Assembly (NCBI GenBank): GCA_963924555.1
Contig: OZ004585.1
Location: 7,022,556-7,086,555 of the forward strand
Length of the DNA: 64,000 nt
Direction: 5' to 3'
Source of the DNA: Crambe crambe
Lineage: Eukaryota > Porifera > Demospongiae > Poecilosclerida > Crambeidae
The position numbers were made by a program, and so were the translations under genes. The notes beneath the pieces are model-generated. The model did not search any database. It saw only the letters and a program-made list of their open reading frames with translations, and was not told the DNA's origin. Positions 3,436-55,000 of the stretch are shown here, one piece after another (the stretch's first letter is position 1; the number at the start of each line of letters is the position of its first letter).

Positions 3436-6400
3436 TTACTCTTTCCTCCTTTTCTTGTTTGCATTTGAAGTAGCTCCCCACGTACTAGGTTCTTTTCCTT
3501 CTGATCTGCACAAAAAGCAGATAGGCCGAACAACTTGCTTTCTCTGTTTAAGGTCTCGAACTAACTCATCTTCTACAAGGGACTCTTCTGGGCCACCACA
3601 ATGACAACAAACAGGAGGAAACTTGACTAGGGTAGCACTGTAATATTGAGACTCTATGACATCAGCACATGATAAGTTAACCCGAGTTACGATAGAAGAG
3701 TGATACTCAGAGGACGAGGGGAAAAGAATACTTCCACATGTGTAATCTGGTTCAAGTTCAATCAACAGTCCTTTCTCAATATCACTTAATGATGTGTCGG
3801 AAAATACACAACGTGGTTTAAAGCAATCACCACAAGATAATACAGCTCGCACCTTTCCACTCTGAGAGAGTAACCTTCGATTTACTTTATCCAACTCTTC
3901 ACCTTCAGGATATTTTGTCTGTTTTTGAGAGGGCCTGTCCTTTTCATTCGGCATACGACCATAGAGTTGTGTGAATGGCTGGTAATGATCTTTGCTTTCA
4001 TCCAAAAGTGGCAATGGTAAAAGCTTATTGATTTGTACTGCTCACATGACAATTTTATTGGATGAGAAGAACAATACTGGCATGATTCAAGCAAACACTT
4101 ACGCACTTGGAAGGAATACTTGGAAATATGGCAGTGTTCTTTCTTGAATCTTTTCAGTGATTCAGATCTCTTCAAATCAGCTTTAGTTAGTTCATTCTTC
4201 TGAAGTGTTGAATCAATGTTGAGGAGAACTTCATCGAACATTTCATCTATTTCTGGTTGTGTTGCTACATGACCACTCTTAAAGTATCGATCTTTCAACT
4301 TTAGCTGTTGAAATCGATGATCAAGAAAATCAATTACAGGTTGTACAGCATGATTTATGCCATCCCCAAGACTTGGATGAGCCTCAATTTCAGCTCTCAC
4401 AGCTTTCATGCTATTTTTATTCTTTACCAGGATTTCAAGGTCACTGGACATTTCTTCTCTCTGAAGGGATGTATTCTGTAGAGCCAAATTTAGCACAGAC
4501 ATAACTCTTTCGGCGGGATTAGTCCAACTTTGATATGGACATGTAGACAAAGCAATTAAGATGTCACAGTTTAGACAGAAGAAGAGACACAATAGACCTA
4601 TTTGAACAGAGCCATAAGATAACCTGTGATCAGGGCCACCATCACTCATTATCATCAAAATAGGCTTTCCTAAACTTAATGATTGTTCTGCACAGCCCTC
4701 CTTCAAAATAATTTTACTCAACTCCACAGAGTGGCGCAGTGCATGGGATGGTTGGGTGACTTTGTTCTTGTTGGTCACATATACCTGACCACGATGGAAG
4801 GAATCACAAGCAGAGTCTGGTATGTCAATAACCAAAGCTACTGATGGCACCACACCATGAATATGGAAATCATGGTCTAATGCTCCCATAATGCTATCCG
4901 ATGAAGGTACCAGAGATCTGCGTCCCCTGGTTCCTGTACTAATGGGCAAGCCTGGTTCACCAACTGGTATGGTGGTCTTGTCATCCACTGAAATGAAGAC
5001 TAAATGTTTGGACAAAAGAAGTGCATATTCTTTAGCATACTTCAATATGACCATCACATACTTTGAATCTGGGTGTGACTTGCGCAACTGCCTCTTTTGA
5101 ACAGCATATTTCACTTCATATCTGCCAGTATATCGAAGTGAATTTGAAGCATAAGGATTGCAAGGTGAAAACTGAAGCCTAACCCACTCCTTAGAAGGAA
5201 TGTCAACATCCTCGCTATACTTAGACTTCAATCGCTCTTCGATAATGTCACAAAGATTTCTAACAGAAATTGCTATGGGCATGTGTAAAATATTTCCATG
5301 TCTTCGGTCATCACAAGCTGGATTAATTTCTAATAGATAGAGATCCAATTCTTCCCAGAATTTATCAAACATAGTTGATTTAGGCTTTTTCATACGTCTC
5401 ATATCAAGAAAAATTTCAGGCTCATCAAGCTCAAAGATTTCCTCGGCTATAGTGGCTACCCTTCGATCCACAGCCTTTTCAGTTACACTCCGAGATGAAG
5501 AAAAATCATCAGTAAGAGAGCGATAAAGATGCCTAAGAACAGCTTTCTGTGACGTCTTCAGCATACGAGTATAACGGTCAATATAGTCACGATGCATTTG
5601 CCTTGTAGAAAACACTTTCTGTCTAGCATTTAAATCTGTGACAATCCTGGCATTGGTGGTTGCTTCAGCACCACTAGCAGGTGTTTTCCAGATAAATGAT
5701 AAGGTTCCCAAGCTATTACCATGCATGAACCTGTAGATCATGCAAGGCATTGATAATTTTAGCCCAGTGAATCAGTTTTTTCTGCTAAACCGGTCCTCAG
5801 GAGCAAAATCATTAGCAAAAATAGGATCATAGTCTTCTTTCAGCAGTAGCACTTCTTCGACTGTTTCATAAGCTGCCTTACATTTGGTTACAACCGGAAT
5901 AGGTAAAAGTTCTAAGCTCTCACTGAGTGTTCTAGCAGGTGTCAAGGACTTTTGATTCATCTTAACAGAACTATTTTGCTGTTTTAGATAGTCTCGATAC
6001 TTGCTAAAGCTTTCAGCCAGGGAATTAAGAACTCGGAGATCTTTGAAAGATGAAGCAAAGATCCAGGGTTGCTGTAGAATACCTGAAAGCTTTTCAAGAT
6101 GAAAGCTCAACCCATCATATGAAAGCTGTGGCTTTTTAAGCTTTTTCTGTCTCCAATTATTATATCCCTGAAATTTTGAGAAAACTTCAGGAAATGGGAT
6201 ACTTCTATCTTGAAATTGCTTATGACATGAATCCACATACCATAGGCAACCAGTTATAACTTTTACACATCGCTCACCAATTGTAGATACCACATCACGT
6301 GTCCAGCCTATATTCATAAAGTCTATTCGCGTTCACCTTGGCCCCGGAAGTAGCTGTGGTATAGTAAGCTTACGTAAGAACGCGTGTTAATCCAATTAGC

Positions 6401-19945: not shown

Positions 19946-22101
19946 TTACTCAACAACAACATCATCAGTATTATCGTCATCGCTATCATCTTCATTTGGG
20001 GATGAGTTCATACAGCCTGACCCTTTGCAGTTTCCACACACAATAGAGCATCTAATGGCATGCTTTCTGCAGGTACATCTCATAGTACCACAATCTGTTT
20101 GACAGTTGCAGCGGATGATGCGCAAAAGATCATCAGGAGCAGGCATTAAATCAGTTGTAATTGGGACAAGTCTTTTTTCACTCTCTCTCCAACCCCATTC
20201 TTCAGGCAAAAATCTGTCCCCTGTTCCTTTCCACTGCAGTATTTGGTAGTAAACATGCAGGCTGTGAAACTTTGCTGCAGCTGATGTTGGTGGTAAAGTC
20301 TGTGGTTGAATATGCGATTTGCTGGTGGCCACTTTCTCACAAAAGCTCTTATACCGTATGAAATCAAGAGACTCCCCAGGTTCCCATTATACATGGTAAC
20401 CAAGACTTGCTCCCCCACAGCTGAAATTTCTTCAATAGAAGCTGATGGCAAGTTAAAGACTTCAGCGTGACTACGGAAGTGATTATTTTCCCTAAATTTC
20501 TTCAGAGCTTTACCTTTTCCAATGCTGTAAAGTTGGGATGTTGTATCACATCCAAGAATCGCATGTAGAAAAAGGATATGAGTACAAACCTCAGGGCCTA
20601 GGTGTTCTTTGACTGCCTGTATATTCCAAATACGGAAATTCTTAGTGTTTCGTTTTGGCTCAGGTTTAAAAAACAAGCTACAAGATTCCAAGCTTGCATG
20701 GTAGATTAGAAGAATGAGCAAATCTGTATCATCACCAATCAATACAGTGTTCATAGTTGAGGCTGACTCCACTGCTTTCTGCACTATTAGGAGATCAGCA
20801 TCTCCTGTAGCATGATAAGTCCCGCAATTCTTTTCCATGAGCTTTGCACTAAGCAAATTGATAAACTGTTGCTTGTTATCCTTGTTTGCAAGAAACTGAG
20901 CCTTACTCATGGTAAGATGCATGCTTTCTGTAAAGGTAACAGTAGCTCCCATTTTCCCCTTGGTTCGTCTCTGATGTGTCATGTCTTTGGTGGATTTGGA
21001 TTGATAACCATCAAAAATAACAACTGCATTCCCATATTTCCTTGTGACATACTCAGTATACACTGCGATGTGCAAATTTCCTTATAGGTGGCTCCTTTGG
21101 TCCATGGGATTCGCTGAAGTAGTGCTCCTCCATCCAACACATACTGGAGCTCACTAGATAATCCAGGAATGCTTTGAGGCAAAAGAGTCCAGATTGCATT
21201 TGCTAGCACAGGCTTTTGTGCGTCCCGAAGAAATTGTGGACCACTAAATAAAGCTGGTGGATAACTGCACAATTCATACTTAAAAATAACTTCCAGGTTG
21301 TCTTGAGATTTCGCAGCAAGAGTGAGTCGCTGAAAAAGTAGCTGTGGGTCAATCTGAATAACATCACCATCTATTCTCACTGCAGCCTTAGTGCCCAGTG
21401 TGACAGCTTGTTTTGCTCATTTGAATACATACTCAGCTACAGCTTTTCCTTCCATATCCAGAATAATGCTTCCAACAGCCTTTGCCTTGTCTACATAGAC
21501 CATGGCATGTGCATGTACACCAGTGACAATATTCCTTAGGTTGGTGTCAGATGTGAAAGGGCTGTTATCCTGAAGAAAACCAAGAATTGTGTGTGTGTCT
21601 TTCCAATCCCGAGCCTGCCTCGCTTTGGTCATGTCTTTGTTCTGCTCACTTGTGTTAAAATTCACTCCAGTCAACTCCTGCATTGCCTTGTTTACTTCAG
21701 CACAAACTGGCATGGACAGTACCCACATTAGACGTTGTTGCTCTGTCATTCCTCGCCCTCTTGTTAATCCACCACTAGTCTTGATGCTCCTCATGAGCAC
21801 TTGTTCAATAACAAGATCTGTAGACAGCCCAGCCCATTGACGATCACTTCTTCGGACGACATGTAGGCCTTCTTGAAATTGTTGATAAGTATCTGGATGG
21901 TCATTCTTCAGCTTTGACATTCGTTGAAGATACACCCAGGCAGATTTTGCATAATGGTTATGTCCAGACGCAGCCAGGTAAGGAAGCATTTTAGAAATGG
22001 TTTCAAGATGCAACGCCCAATTGCCAGTACGTTCAGCTCGTATATACAGGCGAAGTATATTGATCATATCCATATACTGAAGCCAGAGTGTGGCAGTCCT
22101 A
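19946..22101 (-). pseudogene. Broken XPG/PIN-like nuclease-type gene with Cys-rich C-terminus
   Basis: Reading 22101 to 19946 on the minus strand. An acceptor-like CTTCTAG precedes a block starting RTATLWLQYMDMINILR, with HYAKSAWVYLQRM and STDLVIEQVLMRS. An in-frame TGA lies at 21419-21417, a one-base shift near 21075, and another between about 20290 and 20330. The middle carries acidic motifs typical of FEN1/XPG-like PIN folds: VIFDGYQSKSTKD, ATGDADLLIV, LIGDDTDLLILL, and ILGCDTTS. The end (CNCQTDCGTMRCTCRK, CGNCKGSGC) is Cys-rich and is followed by an acidic tail ending at 19946. Such genes are multi-copy in invertebrate genomes and may belong to transposons; XPG-like domains are known in Academ elements. 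The specific superfamily is not established here. The N-terminal part is missing. Confidence 0.6.
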
Positions 22102-24332
22102 GAAGGTCAGTGGATATTTGGTCCAAATAATATTCATTATTATTGAAGAACAAAATATCACAGATAATTTGATTTTCAATTTTTTGAAAATTAAATTTTG
22201 AAAAATAACCCATTTTTTTTATGGATTTAATTTGTGAAAATCAACTGAAATCTTTTAAGATCACATTTTTTTTTCATTTTTAATATTGTAGCTTGATTCC
22301 ACTAACGCCACAGTACCATGTATTTTTTATTTTCTCGTCTTTTGATTACACTGATGCCGCAGTACATGTGATTCGGTACAGTATCACCAAAACTGTAGGC
22401 CTACATTATATGCATACAATCTCTGTCACTAATACCCTTTACCACAAACTACATGGACCACACTAACTTCGAGTTCCAGTACCTGCCATCTTCTGATACA
22501 TATCTTCTATTTGAGTGAGGCATACCCTTTAGCTACATACTGTGATGAAGCAGCAACTATGGAAGAAGCGTCCCCAAGTACTTCACAGCTTTCTAGTGAA
22601 CTATTTTTAATAGCAGTGTTGGCAAGTGAGCTACAGCTGACTGCATGTTTGAAGATGGTCGAAAGAAAACAACCCAAGGTGATCGATCATACAGCCTGTG
22701 ATGTTGCTGTTTCTTACAAGTGGTACTGTTTGGCAACACTAGCTGTATAGCTACCAGTCTAAGCACTTCCTCTAACTACCAGCAAACATTTCTCTTGCAT
22801 ACTAAACTTAAGTCAATTCTTATCACACCTTCTATAGCACTCATTGATCATAGAGCCTGTGATATTGCTGTTTTTTTACAAGTAGTACTATATTTGGCAA
22901 CACTAGCCATATATAGCTACCAGTCTAACCACCTCCTCCAACTACAAAAGCCCAGCAAACATTTCTCCTGTGTGAGATTACTGAACTTAATTCCTAGCAC
23001 ACTTTCTGTAGCACTCATTCAACCCTTTACCCCAAAAAGTTACATAGCATCACAATTACTATTTTAAAAATTCATCATGATGTTAAAAAGTAAAGTGTTC
23101 CAAATGAAACTTCGATGCTGGCTTTCTGTCTTGCCACCTGAAAGAAACAAACAAATAATAGTTATCAAATTATCACTCTGGAGTATAGTAATTGGCATGT
23201 GCATTCAATACTACTGAGTCCATGTTCTCATTTTGCATGTATGGAGAACTGCACAGATATGATTAAACATGCAGGTATAAAAACAGTACCACCTAGACCT
23301 GTCACTTAAAAACACTCCGGCTGGGTATGCTGTTGCTCTACACTAGTCCACAGACACAATAAGGGGGGGGGGGGGGGGGGGGGGGGGGTTCCCTGGCTAA
23401 AAAATCTGCACTAAAAAATATTGGATTACTCATTAACCATAATGTGTATTCGCATAAAATATTGGATTACTCATTAACCATAATGTGTATTCGCATGAAA
23501 TTAAGTATGCTATTTCAATGATAGTTGGAGTACATACGAACCAAAAAGTGGGTGTGGCTTAAGAATTGAGGCCCCAAAATATTGTGTTCAAGCAAAAAAT
23601 GAAGACCACTGTTAGGGACAGTAATAACTCAGGATAAAATTTCATCACTTTACACATTATGTAGGACTACAAAATGCGGCTTTCCTTTTTCCGTAGCAAC
23701 ACACACAAAATTTTTAAATCATCTTTTAAGTGATTCACTAATGTTTTAAAGTACCTTTCAGTACTTTAAGTCATTTAACGTGGATTACAGTGCCTATATA
23801 GAGAGCCACATTTTGTAGAGCTTCTAAAGAAGATTCAAATGATATCTTAAATTTTTAAATTAAGTTATCATTGTCCCAAGAAGCAAATTTTTAACTCTTT
23901 AGGGTATACAGCTACTCTCATAGTGCCTTCATAAGTGGTCATTAAAAAAAAAAATGAATTAAAAATTGTTAATCATGTGATAGAGGCTTCAAATTTGGCT
24001 TGGACTTAGCTATAGCATGAAACTAAGCAATGAATTTTTTTATCTGGGTTATACGGACATTGGTATGGAGGAAGGGAAGGGCTAAGACAGGAAGTAAAAA
24101 AGTGGGCGGAGTCACACTAATACATTTGTAAAGTGGCGAGTTTTGGACCCAAGGAACCCCTCTTAAGTCTTGTGCCTTTCAGATAGAGTAGGTAAATGGT
24201 CAGCAGCACTGAGTGTGCATTATATGGAGTATATTATAATACAGAGCTGGAAATCTTGCCCTTTTCACTGGAGAGTATTGCCTAGACATTGTTATGGCTG
24301 AATTCTAATTGCTACTGGGAGTGTGGTGGAAT

Positions 24333-30776: not shown

Positions 30777-30954
30777 TCCGGTCCTCTCCACACACACACA
30801 GATGAAGAAGTAGCTATAAATAACAGAGATAACGCAACAAAATAGCAGAAGTGAGCTTTTTGCTATTACCGGCAGATGCAGAGATAGAGCCGCTCGTGCT
30901 GCAGAAAAGTTTTGCGCATGTGCAGGCACACCGTGACTGGCGACGAGAAGTGGA
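30777..30954. promoter_or_regulatory. Putative bidirectional promoter
   Basis: 178 bp separate the ATG codons of the RING gene (minus) and the integrase-like gene (plus). The interval must hold both 5' ends unless there are upstream non-coding exons. No specific motif is claimed. Confidence 0.4.
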
Positions 30955-31211
30955 ATGGCTGTCTTGGAGGCAATTCCTGCTGCAACACTTATCATTAGAA
31001 AGCTGATAGTCGAAGAGCGACGCAGTCACCAAGATGTGAGCGTAATCTTGAAGGAAAAGTTCCCCTATCTATCCCAAGGGCTGAGCTCTAGAACTGTGAG
31101 GAGATTTTGCAAAACTCACAACATCCATAGGACATCAAGATTAGAAGGTGGTGCAGTGGACAGAATTGTCAGAACAGCTATACAGAAGGTAAGAACAATG
31201 TGACTAGATCT

Positions 31212-31250
<39 letters not shown>

Positions 31251-34200
31251 GACTGGATTGCAGTGGGCCATTGAATGTTGATCAGTAGCTAAATAATGCA
31301 TGCACTCAGAAGGTACTAGACTTGTTGATGTGTGGTGCTCTAGTACTCTATGAACATTAGCATAAAGTTAGTTTGCTCATTGCTATACAAGGCCACCCAT
31401 GGAACAGTACCAAATTCCTAGTCTGGCGCGCGCGACCCCCCGAAAAAAAATCGGGAGGGTCTGGTGACCCGTATATACACGTTTGGTGATCCTGGAATGT
31501 AATTACTACCACTTACCGTGATCTGGTTTGTTTACATTCCAGAACTAATTAGCAACTAAAACTTTGCGCGATGGAATGTTTGCGCAATTGCTGCATGCTA
31601 CTGCTTAGTTAGCTATAGGCTACTGGTTATCTTCTACCATGATGGTGGAGGCTAGATCAGTTCCAGATTTAAAAGCAGTTATCCATGAAGTAGCCTCTTC
31701 TCTAGGATACAAACTAAAGTTGCAGCAAGAAGAAAGCATACTTCAATTTGCAAGAGGGAATGATGTTTTTGTTTCCCTCCCCACAGGGTTTGGTAAATCT
31801 CTGTGCTACACCCTGCTTCCAAGAGTGTTTGATTATCTTCGTGGGGTAGAGAAGAAATCAATGATATTAGTGATATCTCCATTGATTGCCCTCATGGAGG
31901 AACAAGTTGGGTCAATACAGTCATTGGGCATTTCAGCTGTATATGTTAGTGATACAAAGTCAAGAGATAAGCAACAGATCCGAAATGGAATGTACCAAGT
32001 GATATTCATGAGCCCTGAAGCACTATTCTGCAGCACAGAATGGAAGCAAATCCTTTCAACCGATCTGTACAGGCTAAACCTGGTTGCCATGATAGTGGAT
32101 GAAGCCCACTGTGTAAAGACATGGTAAAATTAGTGTTCAATTTTAGCTAAGAGTCTATAATAATATACTATCATTTAGGGGTGCTGCCTTTAGGAAAGAA
32201 TTTTCCCATCTAAGTGAAGTTAGGAGTATAGTGCCTGACACCGTCCATGTCATGGCACTCACTGCCACTGCCACCCTGGCCACAAGGAAGCATATCATCA
32301 CTAACTTGTGCATGCAGAGGCCATCTATTGTGTATGTACCACCTGTGAAAGGTAAACATCACATACTATGTAGGAGATAAGCCTAAGGGTGGAATAAATG
32401 CTGCTTTTCAGCCCATTTCTAAGGCCTTAATCGAGGATAAAAATATGGGTAGGACATTGATATTTTGTCGCAGTTACAATGACGTCATCAAAGTGCATCA
32501 ACACTTCAGAGCTGCCTTAGGATACAGATATTTGGAACCACCTGGATCCCCTGATTATGTCAAATATAGAGTTGTTGATATGTTTACACACTGTACACAT
32601 AGTACAGTGAAAAAAAAAATAATTGAACAGTTCACAACGGAGTCACCACTGAGAGTCATTATTGCAACGATAGCTTTCGGCATGGGTATGAACTGTCCCG
32701 ATATTCGACAGATAATACACTGGGGTGTTCCACAAGATGCAGAAGCATATGTGCAAGAGAGTGGGCGGGCAGGCAGAGATTATAAACATTCCATAGCTAT
32801 TATTCTAAAGAAAGCACGTGATCTGGATAAGCGTTACACGTCTGAACAGATGATAGAATACTGCCAAAGCAAATCACTTTGTAGGCAGTCAATTTTGTAT
32901 CGTGATTTTCCAGGCTGTGACACTGTCCCACCACAAGGGTGCCTATGCTGTGATATATGTAGCACTTCCTGCAAGTGTGGAAAATGTGATTCATATAACC
33001 TATTATTTCATTTGCCTATCATGCAGTCTGACTAATCATTCACTATTATACTAATCAGTCACTTTTTAATATTCAATAGCATATCAAATAATTATAGTGC
33101 CGATATAAATTTTTCAATCATCCATGCTTTCATTTTTCCTTCTTTTAGTTTCTTGATAACATTTTTCTTCATGCTTGTGAATGATTTGTGGATTTCAGTT
33201 GTATCGGAGTTGAAAATTGGCTGTTGTAGAAGTTCCTCAATGATTTTAATCAAGTCTCTATGCAGACTCTTTTGTGAATGCTTACCACTACTTGAGGACA
33301 CACTAACTTCCTTATCAAAAGACTGGGTGATCATAGCAAGCAAGCCTATTGCCTTCCCAGCTCTGGTGATAGCTTGTTTACTTTTATTTGCTCCCAAACC
33401 CTCAATAGCTGTTTTCACCAGGCGATTCAGGTGCTCCATATGGAGATCGCAACTAATGTTATGGCCAGGCAGGCCATGCACATTAACAAATCTGGACCAT
33501 TTAAGCTGTTCAGCTAGGTTTGGTGGCAAGATAAGGTGGTATTGGGAAAGAAGGGTGAATGCCTCAATTGCATAGTTCTTATGTCCTGTAGCCTTCCATA
33601 TTAACATCAAATACTTCCACATTAGCAAGATTCTGTCCCCATCTCCTTCACGTACAGCATCCTTAAAATTGAGATAAAGCAGACCTAGGCTGATGACTTC
33701 ACATGTGTAGTCGTACACAGTGCCCTTCTCCCGTACAGCATTGTTAGCTGTGCCACCACCAGACTCCTCGCTCAATGATGGGTCTTCAAAAACTGAAGCC
33801 AGATCAACATACTCATCTACAATGTGCCCAGAAATTCTTTGAAGTAGTGAGGCTCTGACCATATCATCTTGCCACCATATATCTTCTGCGACAATATTTG
33901 GATCTGGTACATCTTCAAGTGATGTCATGCTTAGGTAAGCCATGATAGCAGCAATGATGTAGCCAACAACTACAATTTCTAAGAAATCCTCAGCTGCGTT
34001 GACATCAGATTTTGGCTTAGAAGTCACATTCCTTCGGTTGATTAAGTTTCTAATCTGGTAAAGTGTTCCCCGTTCCATTGACGAATTTGTTTTGAACAAA
34101 CGTTTCCAAATTGCCTATAATTATAAAAACATAACTGAATGTTGACAGGGGAGTTAAAATTATGACACTTACTTCCAGTAGGCAAACTTTAGCATGCCAG

Positions 34201-37200
34201 TCCTCCGAAACTGGCAACAATCCTTTTAGACGATCTTCCTGTAGCTCACTCCCACTTCTAATATATATGGCACCTCTTGCTCGCACTGCTGATAAAAGAT
34301 CTCCTCCAACAAGAGTGGTGATGAATACTTTCTCTTCCTTCAAGTCAGTTCCAGGTACCTGTTCCTTCATATCAACAAATCTTGATGGTACATATTTTTG
34401 CAGTGTTTCTAAAATTCGAATCATCCCTTCATAAGAGGTTTCATTTTCATCCAATACTCCAAGTGGTACCTGAATGGAAAAAATTAGCACAGCACTGTGA
34501 TAGCAACACATTGGAAATGGCAGAGTGAACCATGTGTACGTAAAAACGAAGTCTTAATGTACTAGCATACTAGGTCACCTCTGTACAATGGAGTTTAATT
34601 TCATGCTGACATGCCTTGCATAGCTGGCAGTCAGAGGTGTCTACCATAATCTAGTTACAACATTAGCACTCACCACTTCAGATTTCTTGCACATTTCATG
34701 ACTATACTTGTGAGGAATATGTTTCACAACCAAGTTCTCAAAATCTTTGCCAAAGAATGGCACGTAAGCATGTATAATGCGTGAAATCAAAATAGTGAAA
34801 TCTTTCTTCAGCAAATCATAATCGTCTGAACTGGGCAGAATGCCATATAGATTTAATTCTGTTTGTATTTGAGAACTAAGGGAAGAGTAATTAACCCTAT
34901 CCTTAACTCCATACATCTGTACATAGTGCAATGACTGGGTCTGGGAATCCGATCTCATATAACGGGGTTTCACGTTCTTGTCAATATTATCAAATACCAA
35001 CTTATATCCAGAATTCAATGATCCAGGTTGCTCAACTTGCTGATTAATTGGATTGATTTGGGGATTAAATAAATCTGGAGAGGTTGACAGAAGTACTGTT
35101 TCCTCTGATGGTTCAGGAAAATCATCACTTTGCAGTTGGGATATATCGAGACTGGGCAGGGAACAGCTGTCATATGATTCTCCAGATATATTAGAGGGAG
35201 CTGAATCAGATGACTCCTGTTGATGAAGGGGAGTAGATGAACGCAGGGCTGAATGTCCCTGTTGACTCAAATTCTGTTGTTCAGGGACTGTTGTTATGCA
35301 TTGCTGGTCAACATCACTGTTCACCTGAAAATAGGCAGGTAAGCAGCTACAATGTGTGAATGCTATAGACATGACTGCTCATTGGTGATTAACACTACTG
35401 AAGTTCCCTGCTATTGTATAGGCTACTGATGAGTGGTGATTAGAGATACACCTGTGGGAGTGTCTCCTTTAGGCCATGAGTTGACTCTTACCTCAAAGTC
35501 ACTGTATTGATCATCCCACTGGTCCCAGCGATCATTCCAGTCCTCAAGTGAACTGCACGATCGATCACCCGACATCAGGATGGATCCTGCCTGAATCATG
35601 TCCTGCATCCACTCCGTGAAAGGGTGGTAGCTTATTTTTCCAAGCAGCACCTTGATACTCCACCTAATAATAACGTATATGTATAGCTAAGGCTACTATA
35701 ATAATACTATGAATTATGAATATTAACATACGTACACTGAGAGAAGAAGTGACAAAAACATCTTCAGCAGTAGTTTTCCACTGTTTGACAACAGAGTCAT
35801 ACTGGTCTCCAAGCAGATCAATTAGTTTAATGGTTCTGGAATGTGATAAACATAGTCCAAGCTTTTGGAGCCGTTGATACACCTAGAAAATATTTATGAA
35901 GTGTAAACCCAAAAAATTTTATATTATAAATACCTGTTTGCTGGAATGTCCTGTGTACAAGACTAATGACACTATTCTCTGTAATTGACACACAGAAGCT
36001 TTACGGTGCTTGCACATCATGGAGGTGATAATGGCTATGATGAGATTTGTATTCCCTCGGGCCTGTCTTGTTTTCAAGGTCCACCTCAATAGCCAGAGGA
36101 GAGTAGGTGCTCTGGCTTCCATCTCACAAATGAAGCGATTGACCATACCACTAAAATCCACAAGGATGTTCTTAGGACTCTGTGCCAACACTGATTTGAA
36201 CTTTGTTGAACAGAGGGATGCTACCTCTTTTTGCAACATCTGACCCAGAACAGTAAGCACGGCCTTCTTAGCAGAATGATTCTTCATCGTGGTAGTTGCA
36301 AAAGATCGGTAATTACTCCTAACTAGCGGTTTACAAATTTTTCTTCGGGTTGGTGTAACAACATACGATCTTGGCTTTCCAGATCGGTAGAGCACTCGTG
36401 CCTACAATAAGAATAACATTTCCACTCAGTGTGATATTATTATCAAGAACCCACAGTTGGAAAGAAAATAGTAGCTACCCAGGCTTCATCCTGATTATGC
36501 TAAGTAGCATAAACTTACTACAACTACTGGTGATTCATTGTGTGCAGCTGCTGCTACTCCTGATCCTGCAGTATGTGTATGTTGAATCCTTGGAATTGGT
36601 TTAGAAGTTACTGGGGAATTTTCACTTGCTGCAGCCAATGAGGGTAGTCTTGGAATTGCAGTCTTTATCTTGTCACTTATTTGCTGGTGGAGACTTTCAT
36701 ACCGTTCCAGTAATCCAGCACAGCTTCTGCAAACATAGCCAGTATGTAATCTGGACACATCAATAGCACTTTGCTCTTCAGATGCAAAAGTGATCAAGAT
36801 CCCCAAGCCTCCTTTTAAATCAGGACTGGAGAGTGGCCGCCTCCTCTTCTTCTTCTCACCGTTAGAGAGATCATCCCCACAACAGTAGCAAATCTCCATA
36901 GCCTCTTGTGCTGAAGTACAATTCGCGCGCTGCATTGCGCTAACATTTATCACTGCCCACGCTATTAATGAAAACCACAGTCATTTCATAAGCAGTACAT
37001 AATTTATATGCTTACCCATGAATCATGGGTAAGGTCACCAAACGTGTATATACGGGTCACCAGACCCTCCCGATTTTTTTTCGGGGGGTCGCGCGCGCCA
37101 GACTACCAAATTCCCATGTAAAAAGGAAAAGAGTCTGGCTAACCAATTTTTTTTTTTTTTTTCATTGTTAAGGTTGGTCCAACATATGGTCGCAAGACCA

Positions 37201-38557
37201 TGACTGGTTTACTGGCTGCTGATGGTTTCAAGGTTGCTGAAAAACGAGTGGGAGTTTCTCTCAAGAAAGTGTGTTCTGCTTACCATAATAGGAGAGTAGC
37301 ATCTACACAGTCTTTGATTAATCCTATTCCTTATTCTGCTAAATATTTTGGCGAGAAACTACACATTGATCAAAACGAGAAAATGGTCCAATTTGGTGTA
37401 ACTCATGTCTGTGCCGTGGATGGCTTTAGTGGCATGATTGTTGGCTTCGTCACCATGCCAATCAAGAACAACAGAATTATATATGAATCCCTATACATGT
37501 GAGTGGTTACTTTTAGGGCTTATTGATCACAAGTTTAAATGTGGTTATTCTTTGATGACTAGTTTTGATTGAGTGTACATAATTTTAGTGGTGAAATTGA
37601 TTTAACTATCGTTTCTATGTAGCATATTATTACTCCATAGGAATGAAAATAATAGTTTCAAGATCACCATACAGTTCAATATAATTAACTTATTGTACCT
37701 AGGAAAGTTATATCCCAGTTTGGAATGTGGGACCAAATTCGTGTGGACTATGGGCGGGAATGGTTCTTGATGTTGTCAGTACAACAGGCACTTGCTGGAT
37801 TAAGGAATAATGTAGCAAAAACACCATATATTCAAACTTCATCAAAGAAGGTTAGTATCAGTACTGTTTCCAAACTATTTCAACAAACAGGATTTATTTG
37901 CAGAACCATATAGTTGAAAGGATGTGGAGCGAAATTAATGTTAGAGTGAACTACCCAATTAAATCCATTCTAGTGGATCTGGTTGACAAAGGTGAAATCA
38001 ATCCAGATTATTCTCTTCATTATTTTTGCATTTCCTGGTTATGTACAAGAGTTTCTTTTGTTGGAATTGAGTTATTTATCAAGTCTTGGAACAATCATCC
38101 TATCCCAGGTAAGTTGAACTGTGAGTGTGAGAATATAAAGACAATGCTTATTATAGCTGGGTATAGAGTCCATTTGCCTTGAGGAAATGGTATACCTGTC
38201 AGCTTGTCATGTTCATCTGCAGGTAGGAGGAAGGGTAGAATGCCAGCTCATATCCCAGTGCAAGTTATGAGAGTGAACAATAAAGCTTCAGTAATTAACG
38301 CTGACCTCATTCTGCATCCACAGCAAGCTATCGATCAGTACCGATTGAAAGGTGGCAGTATCACAGATCCAGAACAGCACATTCAGGATCCGTTATTTGA
38401 TGACCCCTCAAAAATGGATATTCGTCTCGTTTCATTTAATAAAAGATTTCCATCAATTGATGCCATTTTTCATGGTGTGGTTAATGGAAATGCTACCATG
38501 TTTATTGATGCTCTCAAATTTTTTATTGATGTTACTTTTAGACTCTCTCATAGCTAA
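30955..38557 (+). CDS. Integrase-like (rve-type) protein, five exons, 415 aa, intron 1 holds a transposon
   Basis: Exons 30955-31188, 37173-37498, 37703-37850, 37904-38108 and 38223-38557 join with phases 0, 2, 0, 1 and end at TAG/TAA near 38557. Exon 1 reads as a helix-turn-helix-like segment (SHQDVSVILKEKFPYLS, SSRTVRRFCKTHNI). Exons 2-4 give an integrase-type catalytic core: LHIDQNEKMVQFGVTHV with CAVDGFSG, then RVDYGREW, then HIVERMWSEINVRVNYP. These provide plausible D, D and E residues. All exons are intact, which for a mobile-element gene suggests recent activity or domestication. Intron 1 would be about 0.3 kb without the 5,687-bp insertion. The exact superfamily is unknown to me; similar cores are found in uncharacterised multi-copy animal proteins. 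Confidence 0.75.
31218..31247. repeat. Poly-T tract (30 T)
   Basis: Uninterrupted T run in integrase-gene intron 1. Confidence 0.95.
31419..31489. repeat. Left 71-bp TIR of the 5.7-kb transposon
   Basis: Identical, base for base, to the complement of 37035-37105, including an 8-A run. Includes a further short palindromic patch CCCGAAAA...TCGGG. Confidence 0.95.
31639..33035 (+). CDS. RecQ-like superfamily 2 helicase (two exons, one apparent 1-base frameshift)
   Basis: Exon 1 is 31639-32123 and exon 2 starts at 32179; the joined codon is Trp (phase 2). Motifs in order: Walker A SLPTGFGKSLC, SPLIALMEEQ (Ia), VDEAHC (II), HVMALTATAT (III), GRTLIFC (IV), RVIIATIAFGMGMN (V), QESGRAGRD (VI). The C-terminus has Cys pairs (GCLCCDICSTSCKC) where RecQ proteins bind zinc. 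The total is about 446 codons. One extra A in the AAA at 32354-32356 breaks the frame between motifs III and IV; dropping one base makes the reading continuous and the total length divisible by three. This may be a real mutation or a sequencing error. RecQ proteins are 3'-5' DNA helicases; here it probably assists transposition. It lies inside the 5.7-kb transposon. Confidence 0.85.
33092..36953 (-). CDS. Seven-exon transposase-like protein, ~1,059 aa (DUF6589-like)
   Basis: Exons on the minus strand: 36953-36519, 36401-35934, 35882-35736, 35650-35492, 35324-34674, 34469-34173, 34114-33092. All junctions are phase 0 with GT-AG ends, and no stop or shift occurs. Exon 1 has a putative zinc finger (CYCCGDD ... 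YVCRSCAGLLERY). Exon 5 holds LVFDNIDKNVKPRYMR, exon 6 GGDLLSAVRARGAIYIRSG and SEDWHAKVCLLE, exon 7 SCDLHMEHLNRLVK and LGANKSKQAITRAGKAIG. This pattern resembles DUF6589 proteins, which I associate from memory with transposase-like RNase-H-fold enzymes. D in VFDN, D in GGD and E in MEHLN are the obvious catalytic candidates. The true start may be any of three Met in the first 19 residues. Convergent with the helicase, within the same TIR-bounded element. Confidence 0.82.
37035..37105. repeat. Right 71-bp TIR of the 5.7-kb transposon
   Basis: Perfect inverted copy of 31419-31489, followed directly by the CCAAATTCC duplication at 37106-37114. Confidence 0.95.
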
Positions 38558-38829
38558 GCTTTATTGATGATAATTTTTTTCCCTCGTTGGCAATTTCAGT
38601 ATAGCTGCTGGGTTATTAATTCAAGTGTCCAGAAAAACAGTTATGGTAGTAGCTATAGCAGCTATCATACAATCACTTAATCTAGTTCTGAAGACAAAGC
38701 GACATACATCATGCCAGACCCTGAAGAATAAAGATTATTGTTGTGAAGAATGAAGACATTCAGCGACTTACAGCCCCTTGTGAAGATTGCCTTGATTGAA
38801 GAGACATGCGTACATGCATGCAATCACTG
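38558..38829. other. 3' flank of the integrase-like gene
   Basis: No feature recognised; no terminal inverted repeat matching the 5' side of the RING gene was found here. Confidence 0.35.
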
Positions 38830-39420
38830 CATTTGGGGAGTGAGAGATGCTATCGTTCCAGTGCATGCAGGTGGAGAGTGAGGCATGCAATCATTCCAGT
38901 TCCTGCATGTGAGGAGTGAGACATGCAATTGTTCCAGTTCTGCATGCATGTGGAGAGTGAGGCATGCAAGTGTTCCAGTTCCTGTGCATGTGGGGAGTGA
39001 GGCATGCACAGTTCTGCATCCAAGTGGAGAGTGAGTCGTTCCAGTTCCTGCATGTAGGAAGTGAGACATGCAATTGTTCCAGTTCTGCATGCATGTGGAG
39101 ATTGAGTCATTCCAGTTCCTGCATGTGGGGAGTGAGACATGCAATTGTTCCAGTTCCTGCTGGCATGTAGAGAGTGAGGCATGCAAGTGTTCCAGTTCCT
39201 GTGCATGTGGGGAGTGAGGCATGCACAGTTCTGCATCCGTGTGGAGAGTGAGTCGTTCCAGTTCCTGCATGTAGGAAGTGAGACATGCAATTGTTCCAGT
39301 TCTGCATGCATGTGGAGAGTGAGTCATTCCAGTTCCTGCATGTGGGGAGTGAGACATGCAATCATTCCAGTTCCTGCTGGCATGTAGAGAGTGAGACATG
39401 CAATCGTTCCAGTTGAGTCA
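38830..39420. repeat. Minisatellite with ~217-bp higher-order period
   Basis: Units of 45-55 bp built on GTTCCAGTTCCTGCATGTGGGGAGTGAG-type sequence. A block starting GGCATGCAAGTGTTCC at 38961 recurs at 39178. Several frames stay open on both strands because the unit lacks stops; these are artefacts rather than genes. Degenerate units continue to about 39560. Confidence 0.9.
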
Positions 39421-46076: not shown

Positions 46077-49000
46077 AATGATGAGATCTCATGATGTGTC
46101 ACATTGCTCCTACATCTATTACACTCTCCAAAGTGACTATAAACTTCCTTCTGCAAATTATGCACCATTGGAAGAGTGTTGGAGATATCTACAAAGAGGA
46201 GAAGTCTATGGTGTCCATTGTAGTGATAGTCAAGTGGTCATCCCCTTGTTACTGATACTGGCTGGTGACATTGAAGTCAACCCAGGACCTGGTGAGAATT
46301 ATCATATGCATGACCACACAGTAAGAAACATATACTGTAAAACCAGATGAATGATTTAACCCAGTTTGGTCATCTCATGGAGTTGCAAGCATTTAGCTCT
46401 TTAGCTAGCTAGACTATAGTGCAATTCCTGTCACTAGCTAATCATCCAGAAATTATCATTCAAATTGTTTACAGTTTGGAATGTAGAGCAGCTTCCTTGA
46501 AATCAATGGTGCGTTTTTGATCAAACCGGAAGTCGTGCGTGTGCGCGTGCGGAGCTTGGTACGTACGTACGTACGTCTGGCGTAGCGGCGACCCTTACCA
46601 ACCAAAGGTTGGTAAAGGTCGCCGCTACGCCAGACTAAGTTATTACATACCAAAAATGAAGAGTGCCTGATGAATTTCATAGATGCTACAACAGATTTCA
46701 TTCTCAAGGTAATTTTCGTTGCATCTCAAAGACCGCTTGGATTCTATGGCTAATTTTTGCTATGAAGCTTCCTATACATATTTCTATCAAAATTACGATG
46801 AGTTTTTGTTGATTCATATTTTACTTTTCTACATATCCACACAGGGCCATGCATTCTGGAAAATCTAGAATAGATATGAACTAAAATAAATCGTAACTTT
46901 TTAGACCTTACCTCATAGTTATTGTATACAAAATATTGGCTCATTCCCATGCTTGGTTCCTGAGTTGCCGTGATTTGTTTTTTAATCGTGCTAGCATGGA
47001 TTTTAGATGTGCCAGAGCAGCTGCTACTATTGTGGTTTACTATCTGTTATTTTAGCGTGGTAGTGTTTGTGGTTAATTAGTGCTTATAGTAGCACATGCC
47101 TCAGTTACTATGTATTGGCACCCGGGATCCGGGAGAGTGTGTGTGCAAGAAATGACGATCCGCAAGTTCTTGATAAGCTGCAGCTGTTCGAAAAGAAGTT
47201 GTTCACAGGGATAAAAAATATCAGCACTATATTCTGTCATTATGCACTATGTACATTTCTTACAAAAATAATGTCGTAGCTAATTGCATGATCTAAAAAT
47301 TTTATGAATGGATGAAAACTCAACACATATTCTTTACCCCTATCTATGACAGAGTTTCATCTAGGAATTTCACTTTGGGGGGGAAGCTCACAGTAGTTGT
47401 AGCTAGAGCTGTCATAAAAACTGAGAGTTGATACTATCTGTACATAACTATATAGATTTGTCGACAAAGGATCACAAATCTTTCTTCACAGCAGCTGCTG
47501 AAGGAGATCTGAAAACTATGAAACAATTTATTTGTAATAAAGTTGATGTAAATATTGTGGATGAAGAGGGAAGCACTGCTTTGATGATAGCAAGTAAAAA
47601 AGATCACGCTGATATTGTCATATTACTACTTGATAATGGTGCTTCAGTCAATATGCAAGATAAGAATGGATGGTCTGCTCTGATACATGCAAGTTATGTG
47701 GGAAGCACTGATGTGATCAAAGTATTACTTGAAAGAAATGCAGATGTAAATCTGCAAAATAGTAGGAAATGGTCTGCTTTATTGAACGCTTGTCATTGGA
47801 GAAATGTTGAAGCAGCCAGATTATTGCTTGAGAAAGGTGCTCAAGTAGATGAACAAAATATTAAGGGGATGTCTCCTTTGATGGATGCAAGTGAACAAAA
47901 TCACATTGAAATTGTTGAATTACTACTTGAGAAGAAGGCTCAGGTGAACCTGCAAAGTTCAAGTACGGGAAAATCTGCTTTAATCTTTGCTAGTAATAGA
48001 GGCTACCATGAAGTGGTTGGATTACTACTCCAACATGGCGCTGAAGTGGATCTGTCAGACAAGAACGGGTGGACAGCTTTATTGAATGCATGTCACAGTG
48101 GACACATCGAAGTGGCCAAATTATTGCTCGAAAGTGGCACTCAGGTGAATCTTGCAAACAGTTTGGAGTATTCCCCTTTGATGGCTGCAAGCTCAAAAGG
48201 ATTCACCGAATTAGTGATATTATTACTCAAGAATGATGCAAAAGTTAATCTGATGAACAAGAATGGAGAATCTGCTTTAGACCTTGCAAGACGTAATAAA
48301 CACACTGAAATGGTTGATTTATTACTCAACAAAGGTAAATTGGGCATATATACTTCTTGGATTGGTAGCTAGCTCATGTTAATATTTGCGAGCCTAATAA
48401 TAATCAGGGATATATGATGCGGTTTATGGATATACTAGAGTACTGTATACACCACTATGTACTAATGTATTTTTGTCTGTGAGCCACCCTAAGCTGAAAG
48501 ATCAGCCAGCCCGAATCTTTAGCCTATTCCCCCAAGAATATTGTCCCTAGGACAAATCTCACTACGCATCATAGGTAGCTATAATCATAGATAGTATATT
48601 ACCCGCCCCGGGATTGGAAATGGTAGCATAGGCTAATTGAAAATTCCGCGGGCACTCCGTGTTATGGTTTGCGACCAAGAAACTTACCTAGTTACGTGGG
48701 TAGCAATGGGCTGAAGTGGTCCATTAGGAGGCGTGTAGCTGCTCTATCACAGGGGAACTGCAAGCGGCGGTTAGTATTTATAATTTGCATGCACAATTTG
48801 AATTATTCCTACTAGTATAATGGCTAAATTCCACACTTTAGCGATATAGGAAACTATGTCGGGGGAATGGTAGTCTTCATAACTTAGGTTTGTGCTTATT
48901 ATCTAGTTTTGTGAGTAGAATCATCCTTCTTTTATAGAATGAGTGGCATTAGATGCATGTTACTGCATTAATGGTGAAATATAAACCAATTACTTATAGC

Positions 49001-52000
49001 ATTCATGGGAGGAAGGAAGCATCGGCTATGTACAAGAAAGTAATGGTCACATAACCTCTACTGCTGCACTCCATTCCAGATATCCTGGTCACTCCACAGT
49101 TCATGCCGGTATTAAATGTCAATATCATTTATAGACTGCACTAAAAATTGTTCCGGCATTGCAGCTCCTGTGTCTCTCTAGTAACTGTGCCGGATTGATT
49201 CCTGCAAAATTGTGTTGGTAACTCTGATGACTGCATCTTGGCATTGAAGTTCATTGACAATTTTGATCAGCAATTCTGCATCAATTTTTGTGATCACTTA
49301 CTTGTACATGCAAATCTATCTGAGCCGGAGTATATTTATACTTGCTCATAATTATTATATTGTGTAGCATAATTATTGTGTAGTAGCCTCCTCGGATCGG
49401 CTGATGAATAAGGAGAGGAAGAAGAGTCCATCACATCACTAGTAGCATGCACTGTATGTATTGCACATTATCACTGTTGTATGTACTGTAATATTAGATT
49501 TTAAGCGCGCGCGATAACTTCATAACACGGATTGCCCGTGGAATTGCTTCCGTTTCCAATCCCGGGGCGGTAATATACTATCTATGGTATAATGACCACT
49601 AATGCAGTTCTTATGAATCTCATTACTAAATTTATAGCTAAAATTCATTGATGTTTTTTGCGTGCTAGCTGCATGATTTCGTGCATGGACTTTATAAGAA
49701 GATTCATAGTTGTTATCATAATCATTTGTAGCTGTCCACTATATACTATACTATATTATGCATGCAGGATTGTCAGCTGAGGATCATGAATTATTCTTCA
49801 GAGCAGCTGCTAAAGGAAATCTGAAAGCTATAAAGCAACTAATTATTCGTAATAAAGTTGACGTAAACATTATAAATGAAGAGGGAACGACTGCTTTAAT
49901 GATAGCATGTAGAGAGGATCATGCTGATATTGTTGAACTACTACTTGATAATGGTGCTTCAGTTGATATGCAAGACAAGAATGGACGGTCTGCTCTGATA
50001 CATGCAAGTCGTGTGGGGAATACTGATGTGATCAAAGCATTACTTGAAAGAAATGCAAGAGTAAATCTGGTGAACTATGTGAAATGGTCTGCTTTATTTA
50101 TCGCTTGTAATTGGAGAAAAGTTGAAGCAGCCAGATTACTGCTTGAGAAAGGTGCTCAAGTAGATGAACAAAATAATAAGGGAATGTCTCCTTTGATGGA
50201 TGCAAGTAAACAAGATCATCGTGAAGTTGTTGAATTACTACTTGAGAAGAATGCCAATGTGAATCTTCAAAGTATAAGTTCAGGAAAATCTGCTTTAATC
50301 TTTGCTAGTGATAGAGGCTGCCATGGAGTGGTTGAATTACTACTCCAACATGGAGCTCAAGTGGATCTGCCAGACAAGAATGGGTGTACAGCTTTACTGA
50401 ATGCATGTCAGAGTGGACATATCAAAGTGGCCAAATTATTGCTCGAAAAAGGCGCTGGAGTGGATCTTATGAATAATGGAGGGTATTCTCCTTTGATGGC
50501 TGCAAGCTCAAAAGGATTCACTGAAGTTGTGAAATTATTACTCAAGAATGGTGCAAAAGTTGAGCTGCTGAACAAGAATGAAGAATCTGCTTTAATCCTT
50601 GCAAGACACAATAAACACACTGAAGTGGTCCATTTATTACTCAACAAAGGTGATTTTTATAGTTTGCTGTAGGCTGCTCCAAGGCTCATCGACCCATAAG
50701 TGTACCCTAGTATACAGTAGCTAGTTACTGTATAAGACTTGCATAATGCAAGGGTCAATCTTCTTTACTGTTAATATTGATGTTTGATTATATAAATGTT
50801 GCACTTCTATATATAGGTGATACTTGGCCAGACCAAGATGATACTCAACGCCAAGATACTACTCAATACCAAGATGATATTCGACACAGAGAAGTTTATT
50901 ATAAAGCCATCAAAGAGAAGATTTCATTGAAAATAAAGATGGCTAGGCTCGTTCATGCTGGCCTTCCTCGATCAGGAAAGTCATCCACGATAAAGCGTTT
51001 GATGGGAGAGATTAAGAATCTCCTGGAGGAGGAAAAGAGGGGAAATATTTCACCTAGTACGGGAGTTGCTGAATATGCAGGGCAGGTTATCATCAAGCAT
51101 AGTGACATAAGGGATATAAGTTCTGATATAACAACGATCTCATCAAGTGATTCAAGTTCATCCGAGTGGTCCCAACTTAAAGGCTTCATCAACGAAGACA
51201 AGATGCTTAGCCAGCTATTGAATCAATTAGTCCAAAAGAATTCAGCAAGTGAGTCTTCAGAGATAGAAGAACCTGCATCTTCACTGACGAAAGATTCCGA
51301 ACCAGCTCCTTTACTAGCAGAAGTTTCTGAACCAGCTTCTTTGCAACATACTGTGGCTATAAAACAAGAGGAAATCAAAAAAATGTTTGCAGATACCCGA
51401 ATGAGTGAGGATCTTGTAGAGATCCAATTCCTACTGAATGATCTCAATCGCCTTATCCTTCTGATCAATACCGACACTGGAGGCCATCCTGAATTTCTGG
51501 ATATGCTATCTGCCCTCGTCATGGGTCCTTCCCTTTACCTTCTCTACCACCGACTAATTGATTCACTGGATAAACCTTTCAAGATAACTTTTACCTATCC
51601 TGATGGTGAGTGTACAGATGAAGATGAATCCACTATTACTGTTGAGGAAATCCTGTTTCAAATTCTTGCAAGCATTGCTTGCTTCAGCAACCCTGAACAA
51701 GAACAATCAACTAAAAGCATGCCTGAGAAATATCATATTTGTTCAAGAGCCCTCTTTGTGGGGACCCACCTGGATGGGATAAAAAATAAAGAATTATCAG
51801 AAAAGCAAAAATTCCTACGAGACAGAATTAAAAACACTAGTTTTAATAAAGGCATACTACTATCTGTTCGAAAAGATGAGCCAATTTTAACAGTGGATAA
51901 TTATGAAGGTGATGATAATGACAGAAAGGAGACACAAAAGGTGTTGGAGGAAGTAATCAGAGAAAACTTTAAAGAAATTGAGATCCCAGCAGCCTGGCTT

Positions 52001-55000
52001 ATATTGAGTCTGTATTTGCGCAAGGATATTGATAGTAGCCCAAGAAAGCGTATCATGTCTCTAGACGATTGTGAGAAACAAGCAATAAAGCTTGGAATTG
52101 ACTCGACAGAATTACAGAGTGCTCTTAGGTTCCTGCATCACTGCATGGGACTAGTCTTGTATTATCCTGAAGTGAAAGAAATAAAAAATAAAGTCTTTTG
52201 CGATGTGCAGGTCATATTTGACAGTATCTCACAGCTGATCATACACACTTTCACTAACACAAGAAAAGTTAGTCAAGGCATAACAGAAAAATTCAAGAAA
52301 AAAGGAATGTTTACAAATAAAGACCTTCATCGTGCCATACAACCTAGTGGTGATGAATCAAATCAACTCCCTTTAAATGAATTAGTGAAGCTCCTTGAAT
52401 ACGTCAAGATTTTAGCTATGATCTCTGATTCTACTGGTGAAACCTATTTTATGCCCTGCATTCTGAAACATGCAGCAGCTGGTCAACTGAAGGCTGCATT
52501 GCAGGAAGTTGAATACCCAGCCCCTTTGATGATACATTATGATTGTGGTTTTGTGCCTGTGGGTATATTTTCCCACATGATCACTGACATCGCCTCAGAC
52601 TGGAAGCCAGCTGACAATGAAATTTGGAAGAATATGATAAAATTTTTTGTGAAGGATAATGAAGTTATTCTTATATCACATCCGACACATATTACAATTG
52701 CTTTTTCACGACATCCTCGTTCCAGAACATCACATGAGCAAGAATGTCCCACCATAGTCGAGAAGATTAAGTCTTCCTTGGAGAGAGTAACTGAACGTAT
52801 GCCTTATAAGTCTAATGCACGGTATAAGTTTGGATTCGAGTGCAAGCATGCCACCAGCCCTGTCTCACAAGCCAGCTGCAGTTGCTTCAGTCTGTGCTGC
52901 CCTCCTGCCAGTCCTCCTCCATTGAAGGACCATCTCTGTCTGCGCGAGGGGGAAGACGATTTCATGAGGTGTCAGTTGGATCAAAAGCATGTAGTTCATT
53001 TAGAACCCTCTCAAAGTGTTTGGTTTTCAAAGGTTAGCCACATGATACTTATGATTACCTTTTTACAGTAATGAATTTCCCTATAGAGTCCATCTGGTGG
53101 TAAACAGAGTGATGGTAAGTAGTAATTTAATGCATATCAACGTTTGAAGTGAGGCCAACCTGACTGTTATGCACTATGTCTAGGTGATGTGTACCAGCAT
53201 CAATCCCAACCCCAACAGCGAACGCAGCCACAAGTACCACACCAACAACCACATATGATACCACAGTCATACATGCCTGCACAGCAACAACCTGGACAAC
53301 CCAGTGTTCCAAGTATGCATAGTGCATAATGAAGTTTTCTATGTGCTGAAGGGCATAGTTATATGTCCTCATATACATGTATAGTGCTGTGTTTACGAGT
53401 GTATACTGACTGTATCTAGGTGATGTATACCAGCAACAATCCCAACCCTTACTTGAACCTTGCAGAACGCAGCCACAAGTACCATCCCAACAACCACTTG
53501 GGGGGGAGGGGGGAGGGGCTCATTTTGCTCGTGAATTAGAGAGTGCAGTAGCACTCTATATGCTAACATCTGGTGATTTTACACTGTTAGGTAATAGTCG
53601 TGATTCATGAAGTAAAAACAACAAATTGCTACATGGAAAATTTATGGGATATTGATAACAGCTAGTGTACCTTATATTGACTCTTATGCACTATATAGGG
53701 AACATAATATACCAGCAGCAATCCCAACCCCAGTATACGATCCAGTCACACCAAGAAGTCCAAGGAATGCTTATGACGCCACAGGTATCATACATGAACA
53801 TGCCTGGACAGATACCTCCACAACAACCCTTGTCTTATGCCCAGTTGGGACAACCTGAAGTTCAAGGTAGATATTGTATAACTAGAGTGGGCTATCTTAT
53901 GTTAGTATCCACAAATGCAAGCTCAGCTTGGGTATTAGTAACATTCCCCCTTCAAGCTGATTGATGGAGAGTGGTTTAAATACCTCTTACGTAGCTACCA
54001 TAATTAGGGAGACTACAAAATAGTACCAGTACCTTAAAACATCTGAGTTTAGCATCAAACCATACTTGGCGTAACCCACTTCTTGTTGTGTGTGTATGTG
54101 TTGACTGTATTAAACTATGATTGTATAAAGCTGATAAATTTTCTTTTGTTGCTACTATCTGGCTGCAGGCCCTAGCAGGACAGCTGCATATGCATCAGGA
54201 GAATCTATCCAGACTATGGCTCCTTCTCAGCCACAAGCAAACAACCAAACTGCAGAGCCCAATGTTAGTGCCCAGTACTTCATTGATACAAACTAGGTGG
54301 TATGTTCATTGTGATGAACATAATTATTTCATTATGACGATACAAATCTCAATTCACTAGTCAATTATCGGCTAGCTATATATTCACCTACCGTAAATCT
54401 GGAAATTTTCGCTGTTAAAAATAATTCGCAGTTGGCTCAAACAATGAAAATTAAACATGTGAAATATTTTCTACAACAGATTGTTAAAACATTGAAAATA
54501 TACGGTATAGGAAGCACATTGCGTACTAGCTAGCTAGCTTGCAGTCTCTCCTCAAGTATTTGAAGCAGAAGGATGGTCTTCTAGATCCAAAGGGATCTCT
54601 GTCCTGTTCCTTCTCAGGCTATTGCTCGAGCGAATTGTGAAGTGGAGGCAGAGTTAGTTAGTTCAAGATATTCTTTTGACCACATATCCTACAATCGTAC
54701 CCGATTTCTTCACTGCCACCGCGTACCTGTCATATGTTGGCTCCCTCACACTGGCATCCCACATGTCACGGTACACATGGTAGCCACGAACACAATAAGT
54801 GGTCTGGAACTCTGCGCTAGCAATTGCCGCCATTTTTTCTCCAGCTGGATTTAGTAGCGAAATTTCATTGTTGAAAATAATTTGCGGGTGATTCAAAAAA
54901 CGAATAATAAACGCATTGAAAAAATAAAACGCGAAGATATTTTACGCAAAAATTCCCGATTTACGGTATTTTGCTATCCCACTATTAAATCTGCTAGGTG

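What the first reader, a model, noticed from the sequence alone, without database searches (positions are those of the whole stretch)
31419..37105. Structurally complete transposon pairing a RecQ-like helicase with a seven-exon DUF6589-like transposase
Perfect 71-bp inverted termini, a clean 9-bp duplication (CCAAATTCC), and two convergent genes filling the element. All seven transposase exons join in phase 0 without a stop, about 1,059 residues. Helicase-carrying cut-and-paste elements are uncommon, and a 9-bp duplication is not what I would expect for helicase-bearing Academ elements. It may represent an undescribed lineage or superfamily.
Basis: partly seen in the sequence, partly recalled or inferred. 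Interest (0 to 1): 0.92.

Follow-up and report, generated by a model that had tools for sequence, protein, structure and literature searches.

The report
AcademH DNA transposon with RecQ helicase
This is a recently inserted cut-and-paste DNA transposon carrying a transposase and a helicase; it fits a transposon lineage already described, AcademH, so it is a well preserved new family of a known kind and not a new superfamily.

Summary
31419-37105 is one element: perfect 71-bp inverted termini, 9-bp duplication CCAAATTCC, and three paralogous empty sites with one CCAAATTCC each. The transposase joins in phase over seven exons (1053 aa) and matches DUF6589 (8.5e-58). The RecQ-like helicase is frameshifted near 32350, so "structurally complete" is too strong. 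Of 76 transposase loci in the genome 45 have a helicase within 3 kb, all 45 convergent (30 of 32 long ones). Eleven copies with both genes, in three families, show 8-9-bp duplications.

Possibly new: palindromes in the termini whose arms change together between families (0 of 100,000 arm permutations as good) and a second palindrome at near-constant distance inside (12 of 15 ends). Their function is inferred only.

The parts
31410..31418 (.). Target-site duplication, left copy CCAAATTCC
   Evidence: single copy in three empty paralogous sites
31419..31489 (+). Left (helicase-side) terminal inverted repeat, 71 bp, tip TAGTCTGG
   Evidence: 29 genome-wide matches
31434..31461 (.). Palindrome 1 inside the TIR (GACCCCCCGA ... 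TCGGGAGGGTC), ending in an inner GTCTGG that repeats the tip motif
   Evidence: arms covary between families, though not individually significant in this copy
31492..31542 (.). Palindrome 2 just inside the left TIR (CTGGAATGTAA, 29-nt loop, TTACATTCCAG)
31639..32123 (+). RecQ-like helicase, exon 1 (DEAD domain, DEAHC motif)
32179..32351 (+). RecQ-like helicase, exon 2; frame breaks at its 3' end near 32350
32349..33035 (+). RecQ-like helicase, remainder (Helicase_C, cysteine cluster like RecQ zinc-binding), in another frame
33092..34114 (-). Transposase exon 7 (C-terminal part of DUF6589, conserved DLHMEHLN motif with the candidate third catalytic residue)
34173..34469 (-). Transposase exon 6 (LVGGD, candidate second catalytic Asp; EDWH)
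34674..35324 (-). Transposase exon 5 (linker, then FDNID, candidate first catalytic Asp)
35492..35650 (-). Transposase exon 4 (borders uncertain)
35736..35882 (-). Transposase exon 3 (3' border uncertain)
35934..36401 (-). Transposase exon 2
36519..36935 (-). Transposase exon 1 (CxxC ... CxxC zinc-finger-like N-terminus)
37011..37033 (.). Palindrome 2 just inside the right TIR (CTTACCCATG, 3-nt loop, CATGGGTAAG); sequence unlike the left one, nearly the same distance from the inner motif (26 against 27 nt)
37035..37105 (-). Right (transposase-side) terminal inverted repeat, 71 bp
37106..37114 (.). Target-site duplication, right copy CCAAATTCC

Best explanation
A recently inserted family of AcademH, the helicase-carrying branch of the Academ superfamily of DDE cut-and-paste transposons. 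Shown: one discrete element, precise insertion with a 9-bp duplication, two convergent genes that recur together across the genome, and DUF6589 proteins shared by helicase-bearing (8-9-bp) and nuclease-like (4-bp) elements. Inferred: the DUF6589 protein is a DDE transposase with an RNase H-like core interrupted by a helical insertion domain (probable residues D509 or D512, D671, E940 of the 1053-aa product) that binds the TIRs, cuts the element out and joins it at two points staggered by 9 bp; host repair fills the gaps and makes the duplication. The RecQ-like helicase probably opens the ends or the strand-transfer product; which of these is not known. The window copy has an open transposase but a frameshifted helicase, so it would need helicase from another copy.
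Confidence: 0.9

Rival explanations
1. A new superfamily of helicase-bearing transposons unrelated to Academ.
For: Pfam calls the transposase a family of unknown function; no paper in the held library contains 'DUF6589'.
Against: Helicase plus 9-10-bp duplications is the published description of AcademH; a DUF6589 element with a nuclease-like part and a 4-bp TSD in the same genome fits its sister lineage AcademX.
Confidence: 0.05
2. Chance nest: two unrelated genes trapped between one pair of TIRs.
For: 31 of 76 transposase loci lack a helicase match within 3 kb, and 24 of 69 helicase loci are unpaired; 29 of those 31 transposase loci are shorter than 800 bp.
Against: 45 pairs, all 45 convergent; 30 of 32 long transposase loci paired; pairs at about 60% and 39-40% amino-acid identity keep the same layout, and copies of families B and C share the tip motif and 8-9-bp duplications.
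Confidence: 0.01
3. A KolobokH-type element (Kolobok with RecQ helicase) or a hAT element, since one shares the helicase and the other the fold.
For: KolobokH encodes a RecQ helicase (PMC9587614, passages); the model of a homologue resembles Hermes, a hAT transposase.
Against: The transposase matches only DUF6589 in Pfam at E <= 1; duplications are 8-9 bp of varied sequence, not the TTAA that I recall for Kolobok.
Confidence: 0.03

Closest known systems
AcademH (Kojima 2020, Mob DNA 11:15; known here only through citing passages)
   Same: Helicase beside the transposase and 9-bp duplications; its title places it in animals and fungi (reference seen).
   Different: New family in an apparently sponge genome; some copies have 8-bp duplications; palindromes in the ends, which I could not check against the original paper.
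AcademX
   Same: Shares the DUF6589 transposase region, judged from the nuclease-like element in the same genome.
   Different: AcademX has a nuclease and 3-4-bp duplications; here a separate helicase gene and 9 bp.
KolobokH and Kolobok-1_CCri
   Same: RecQ helicase in a DDD/E transposon; in Kolobok-1_CCri on the complementary strand.
   Different: Other transposase family and, by recall, another target duplication.
hAT (Hermes) and RAG1 transposases
   Same: Overall arrangement of the model: core with helical insertion.
   Different: Pfam shows no hAT or RAG1 family in the protein; the helicase gene has no counterpart there (recalled).

Membership tests
AcademH | Helicase encoded in the element | tested here: met
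   relatives. The window's own copy is frameshifted
AcademH | 9- or 10-bp target-site duplication | tested here: met
   9 bp in the window copy with empty sites; 9 of 11 copies with both genes have 9 bp (one with a mismatch), 2 of 11 have 8 bp
AcademH | Transposase homologous to Academ transposases | tested here: inconclusive
   No named Academ sequence was available; indirect support from sharing DUF6589 with a nuclease-like, 4-bp-TSD element
AcademH | No nuclease of the AcademX kind in the element | tested here: inconclusive
   No nuclease family in the three protein pieces scanned, and XPG_I has 3 matches genome-wide, none here; but these models also miss the nuclease-like part of the comparison element
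AcademX | 3-4-bp duplication and nuclease | tested here: not met
   9-bp duplication and helicase
KolobokH | Kolobok transposase and TTAA target (recalled) | tested here: not met
   CCAAATTCC and other varied duplications; Pfam gives DUF6589 only
hAT | hAT transposase sequence and 8-bp duplication (recalled) | tested here: not met
   No hAT family in Pfam at E <= 1; mostly 9-bp duplications; only the modelled fold is similar
DDE transposases in general | RNase H-like fold with conserved D, D, E | tested here: inconclusive
   Model resembles Hermes and RAG1, conserved acidic residues; coordinates not inspected, Foldseek not significant

The most novel reading that the evidence does not exclude
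The ends of these elements are recognised or processed by shape as well as by sequence. The TIR reads tip - palindrome - inner copy of the tip motif, and the palindrome's arms change together from family to family; a second palindrome of unrelated sequence sits at a near-constant distance inside the helicase-side end (in the window element, at both ends). The RecQ-like helicase could extrude, unwind or resolve these hairpins during excision, which would explain why helicase and transposase travel together and why this branch differs from AcademX.
Probability: 0.15. Interest if true: 0.7.

Novelty: new member of a known kind. Interest (0 to 1): 0.35.

Why it matters
It gives a likely identity (Academ-type transposase, with a modelled Hermes/RAG1-like fold) to a Pfam family of unknown function, and shows helicase-type and nuclease-like elements sharing that transposase region, with 9-bp and 4-bp duplications, in one genome and even in one nest. 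The covarying palindromes in the ends offer a concrete, testable reason for carrying a RecQ helicase.

Tried and rejected
Chance nest: rejected by convergent pairing and empty sites. New superfamily: rejected in favour of AcademH. The XPG_I search of the genome gave only 3 matches, so it did not find the nuclease-like part of the AcademX-like elements; phmmer, profile and Pfam searches of that C-terminus and a profile comparison with two host XPG-family exons (E 0.086 over 14 columns) were also negative or weak, so 'nuclease-like' rests on recalled motifs. Of six further long-frame loci fetched five went into the alignment with L121; L126 was left out because its frame is split, and so is that of L127, which was kept in part. 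Foldseek against PDB gave nothing at E <= 0.001; Hermes and RAG1 appeared only in the second-look aligner. Phages by tblastn: no match. Rfam at gathering scores: no match in the window. The original AcademH paper is not held; seven held papers contain the word AcademH, none of them its description. Paper searches for DUF6589, Academ-H, Academ with sponge and a six-term search with palindrome, hairpin and RecQ found no paper; AcademX is in one.

Against the palindrome reading: the window's own palindrome 1 is not individually significant (z -1.56; p 0.53); only 5 of 15 ends are at p < 0.05 for palindrome 1 and 4 of 15 for palindrome 2; the 20-29 start bin was set. One search looked at 16 ends of families B and C: no palindrome 2 was seen on the eight transposase-side ends, but only about 55 nt inside the inner motif were held, and for 7 of the 8 family-C ends the script took the tip for the inner motif, so these were judged by eye; one helicase-side end of B (C13) has lost it too. 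Families were picked as follows: one search required an inner motif; one search scanned 20 loci, of which 7 showed a usable tip, picked by eye (two of the 7 repeat families already held), and 13 were dropped. L109, whose inner end is undefined, was but dropped, where the second end of the window element took its place (15 ends, 14 families).

Full report
What is there. The window lies in an unnamed 143-Mb genome of 119 contigs, at C8:7022556-7086555. The transposase homologues whose names tell an organism are from sponges (Ephydatia muelleri, Amphimedon queenslandica, Halichondria panicea; about 8,000 candidates scored in each), so the host is probably a sponge (inference). The element at 31419-37105 has 71-bp perfect inverted termini flanked by CCAAATTCC. 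The flanks belong to a multicopy host repeat: joined without the element they match six other places over all 300 nt at 90-99% identity. Three of the six were fetched and each has one CCAAATTCC and no insertion. This fixes the borders and the 9-bp duplication.

Genes. On the minus strand seven exons join in phase 0 into 1053 aa. The only Pfam match at E <= 1 is DUF6589, 8.5e-58, residues 559-992. On the plus strand a helicase runs toward it: DEAD 1.3e-23, Helicase_C 1.2e-14, best solved relative 1oyw (E. coli RecQ by recall); a profile of relatives finds RecQ, BLM and WRN, and two relatives pass NCBIfam's recQ_fam cut-off. An intron at VKTW|G is supported by relatives whose frames begin close to it. 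The helicase frame shifts once near 32350; relatives and copies of families B and C read through that place.

Pairing. A six-frame search found 95 matches to transposase exon 7 and 77 to the helicase C-terminal part (lower bounds). Merged by place, 45 of 76 transposase loci have a helicase within 3 kb and all 45 are convergent; 45 of 69 helicase loci are paired; of transposase loci of at least 800 bp, 30 of 32 are paired. The pairs include families at about 60% (B) and 39-40% (C) amino-acid identity to the window.

Termini and duplications. I read 23 pairs of ends. Exact 9 bp: 11. Nine bp with one mismatch: 2. Exact 8 bp: 2. No clear duplication: 5 (one pair is 21 kb apart and probably not one element; one has a degenerate left end). 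The last 3, on contig C1, share the same flanks and count as one insertion; with the right end reset, two of the three show GACAATGGT, 9 bp, and the script failed on the third. Among the 11 copies with both genes (window, six B, four C): eight exact 9 bp, one 9 bp with a mismatch, two 8 bp. Most ends begin TAGTCT; a few begin TAGCCT or TAGTCA.

The nest on contig C5. A family-C short element, 9-bp duplication GGTGTCACG, sits in the terminus of a family-B copy. Inside that short element sits a 6,616-bp element with 16-bp TIRs CAGTCGTTACGCAACC and a 4-bp duplication TTGT. It holds one 1,861-aa frame with DUF6589 at 1.8e-15 and a C-terminal region whose conserved motifs (NAEEADTR, SPDTDVY, GCDYxSFFSGIGKATF, with variants) look to me like XPG/FEN nucleases; that comparison is from memory, and searches did not confirm it. 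Other long DUF6589 frames occur in the genome (110 matches in all).

Comparison with what is known. The passage in PMC10045372 says that AcademH makes 9- or 10-bp and AcademX 3- or 4-bp duplications, a difference that it relates to helicase and nuclease. PMC10799480 (passages) reports AcademH as low-copy elements in fungi. PMC9587614 (passages) lists Academ among DDD/E superfamilies and describes KolobokH with RecQ. PMC12730594 was seen in outline and abstract only; PMC12210899 and PMC9970103 in passages that only cite AcademH. The original AcademH paper was not read (not held). On these grounds I file the element as AcademH, with the direct homology test still open.

A possible new feature. 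In 15 terminus families the tip is followed by an inverted repeat and, in nearly all, an inner copy of the tip motif. Swapping arms between families lowers their complementarity: mean score 8.7 within against 6.0 across, 0 of 100,000 permutations as high. Taken singly, 5 of 15 ends reach p < 0.05, and the window's own does not. A second palindrome begins 20-29 nt inside the inner motif in 12 of 15 ends (14 families, the window element twice), against a shuffle mean of 2.5 and maximum of 7 in 300 rounds, and 0-5 of 15 in seven control windows (the bin was chosen). In families B and C I see it only on the helicase side, within the short stretch held; the window element has it on both sides with unrelated sequences. 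A promoter or protein-binding palindrome is an equally ordinary reading.

Mechanism. Shown: discrete insertion, duplication length, recurring gene pair. Inferred: DDE excision and staggered insertion by the DUF6589 protein, and strand opening by the helicase.

Noticed in passing
window 20149-21081 (-) and 21420-22106 (-): Two frames that resemble, by eye, a second Academ-type element: a nuclease-like GDDTDLL...GCDTTS...GKGKA stretch and a region like the C-terminal part of the 1861-aa AcademX-like protein. Pfam gave no supporting match and the pairwise comparison of the first was weak (E 0.009).
   Followed up: partly
window 30937-31203 and 37143-37502 (+): The element sits in what looks like an intron of a multicopy repeat coding for an integrase-core-like protein (weak match, E 0.05); six copies without the element exist.
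   Followed up: partly
L121 (G000:C5:6045150-6052350): Three-level nest: AcademX-like element (4-bp duplication) in a family-C short element (9-bp) in the terminus of a family-B element.
   Followed up: yes
G000:C5 6755394-6755727, 4430768-4431129, 3551635-3551989: Short non-autonomous copies (334-362 bp) with family-C termini; the terminus search had 211 candidates, of which 40 were scored. One of the three shows no clear duplication.
   Followed up: partly
window 38824-39417 (-): Long frame that looks like a tandem repeat (HSPHAGTGMTHSPHACRTGT-like units).
   Followed up: no
window 47425-53071 (+): Two frames that look like ankyrin repeats, followed by a 774-aa frame with a P-loop-like stretch (GLPRSGKSST) (by eye).
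   Followed up: no
window 3436-6332 (-): Three long frames (201, 629 and 186 aa) of unknown kind, possibly another multicopy protein.
   Followed up: no
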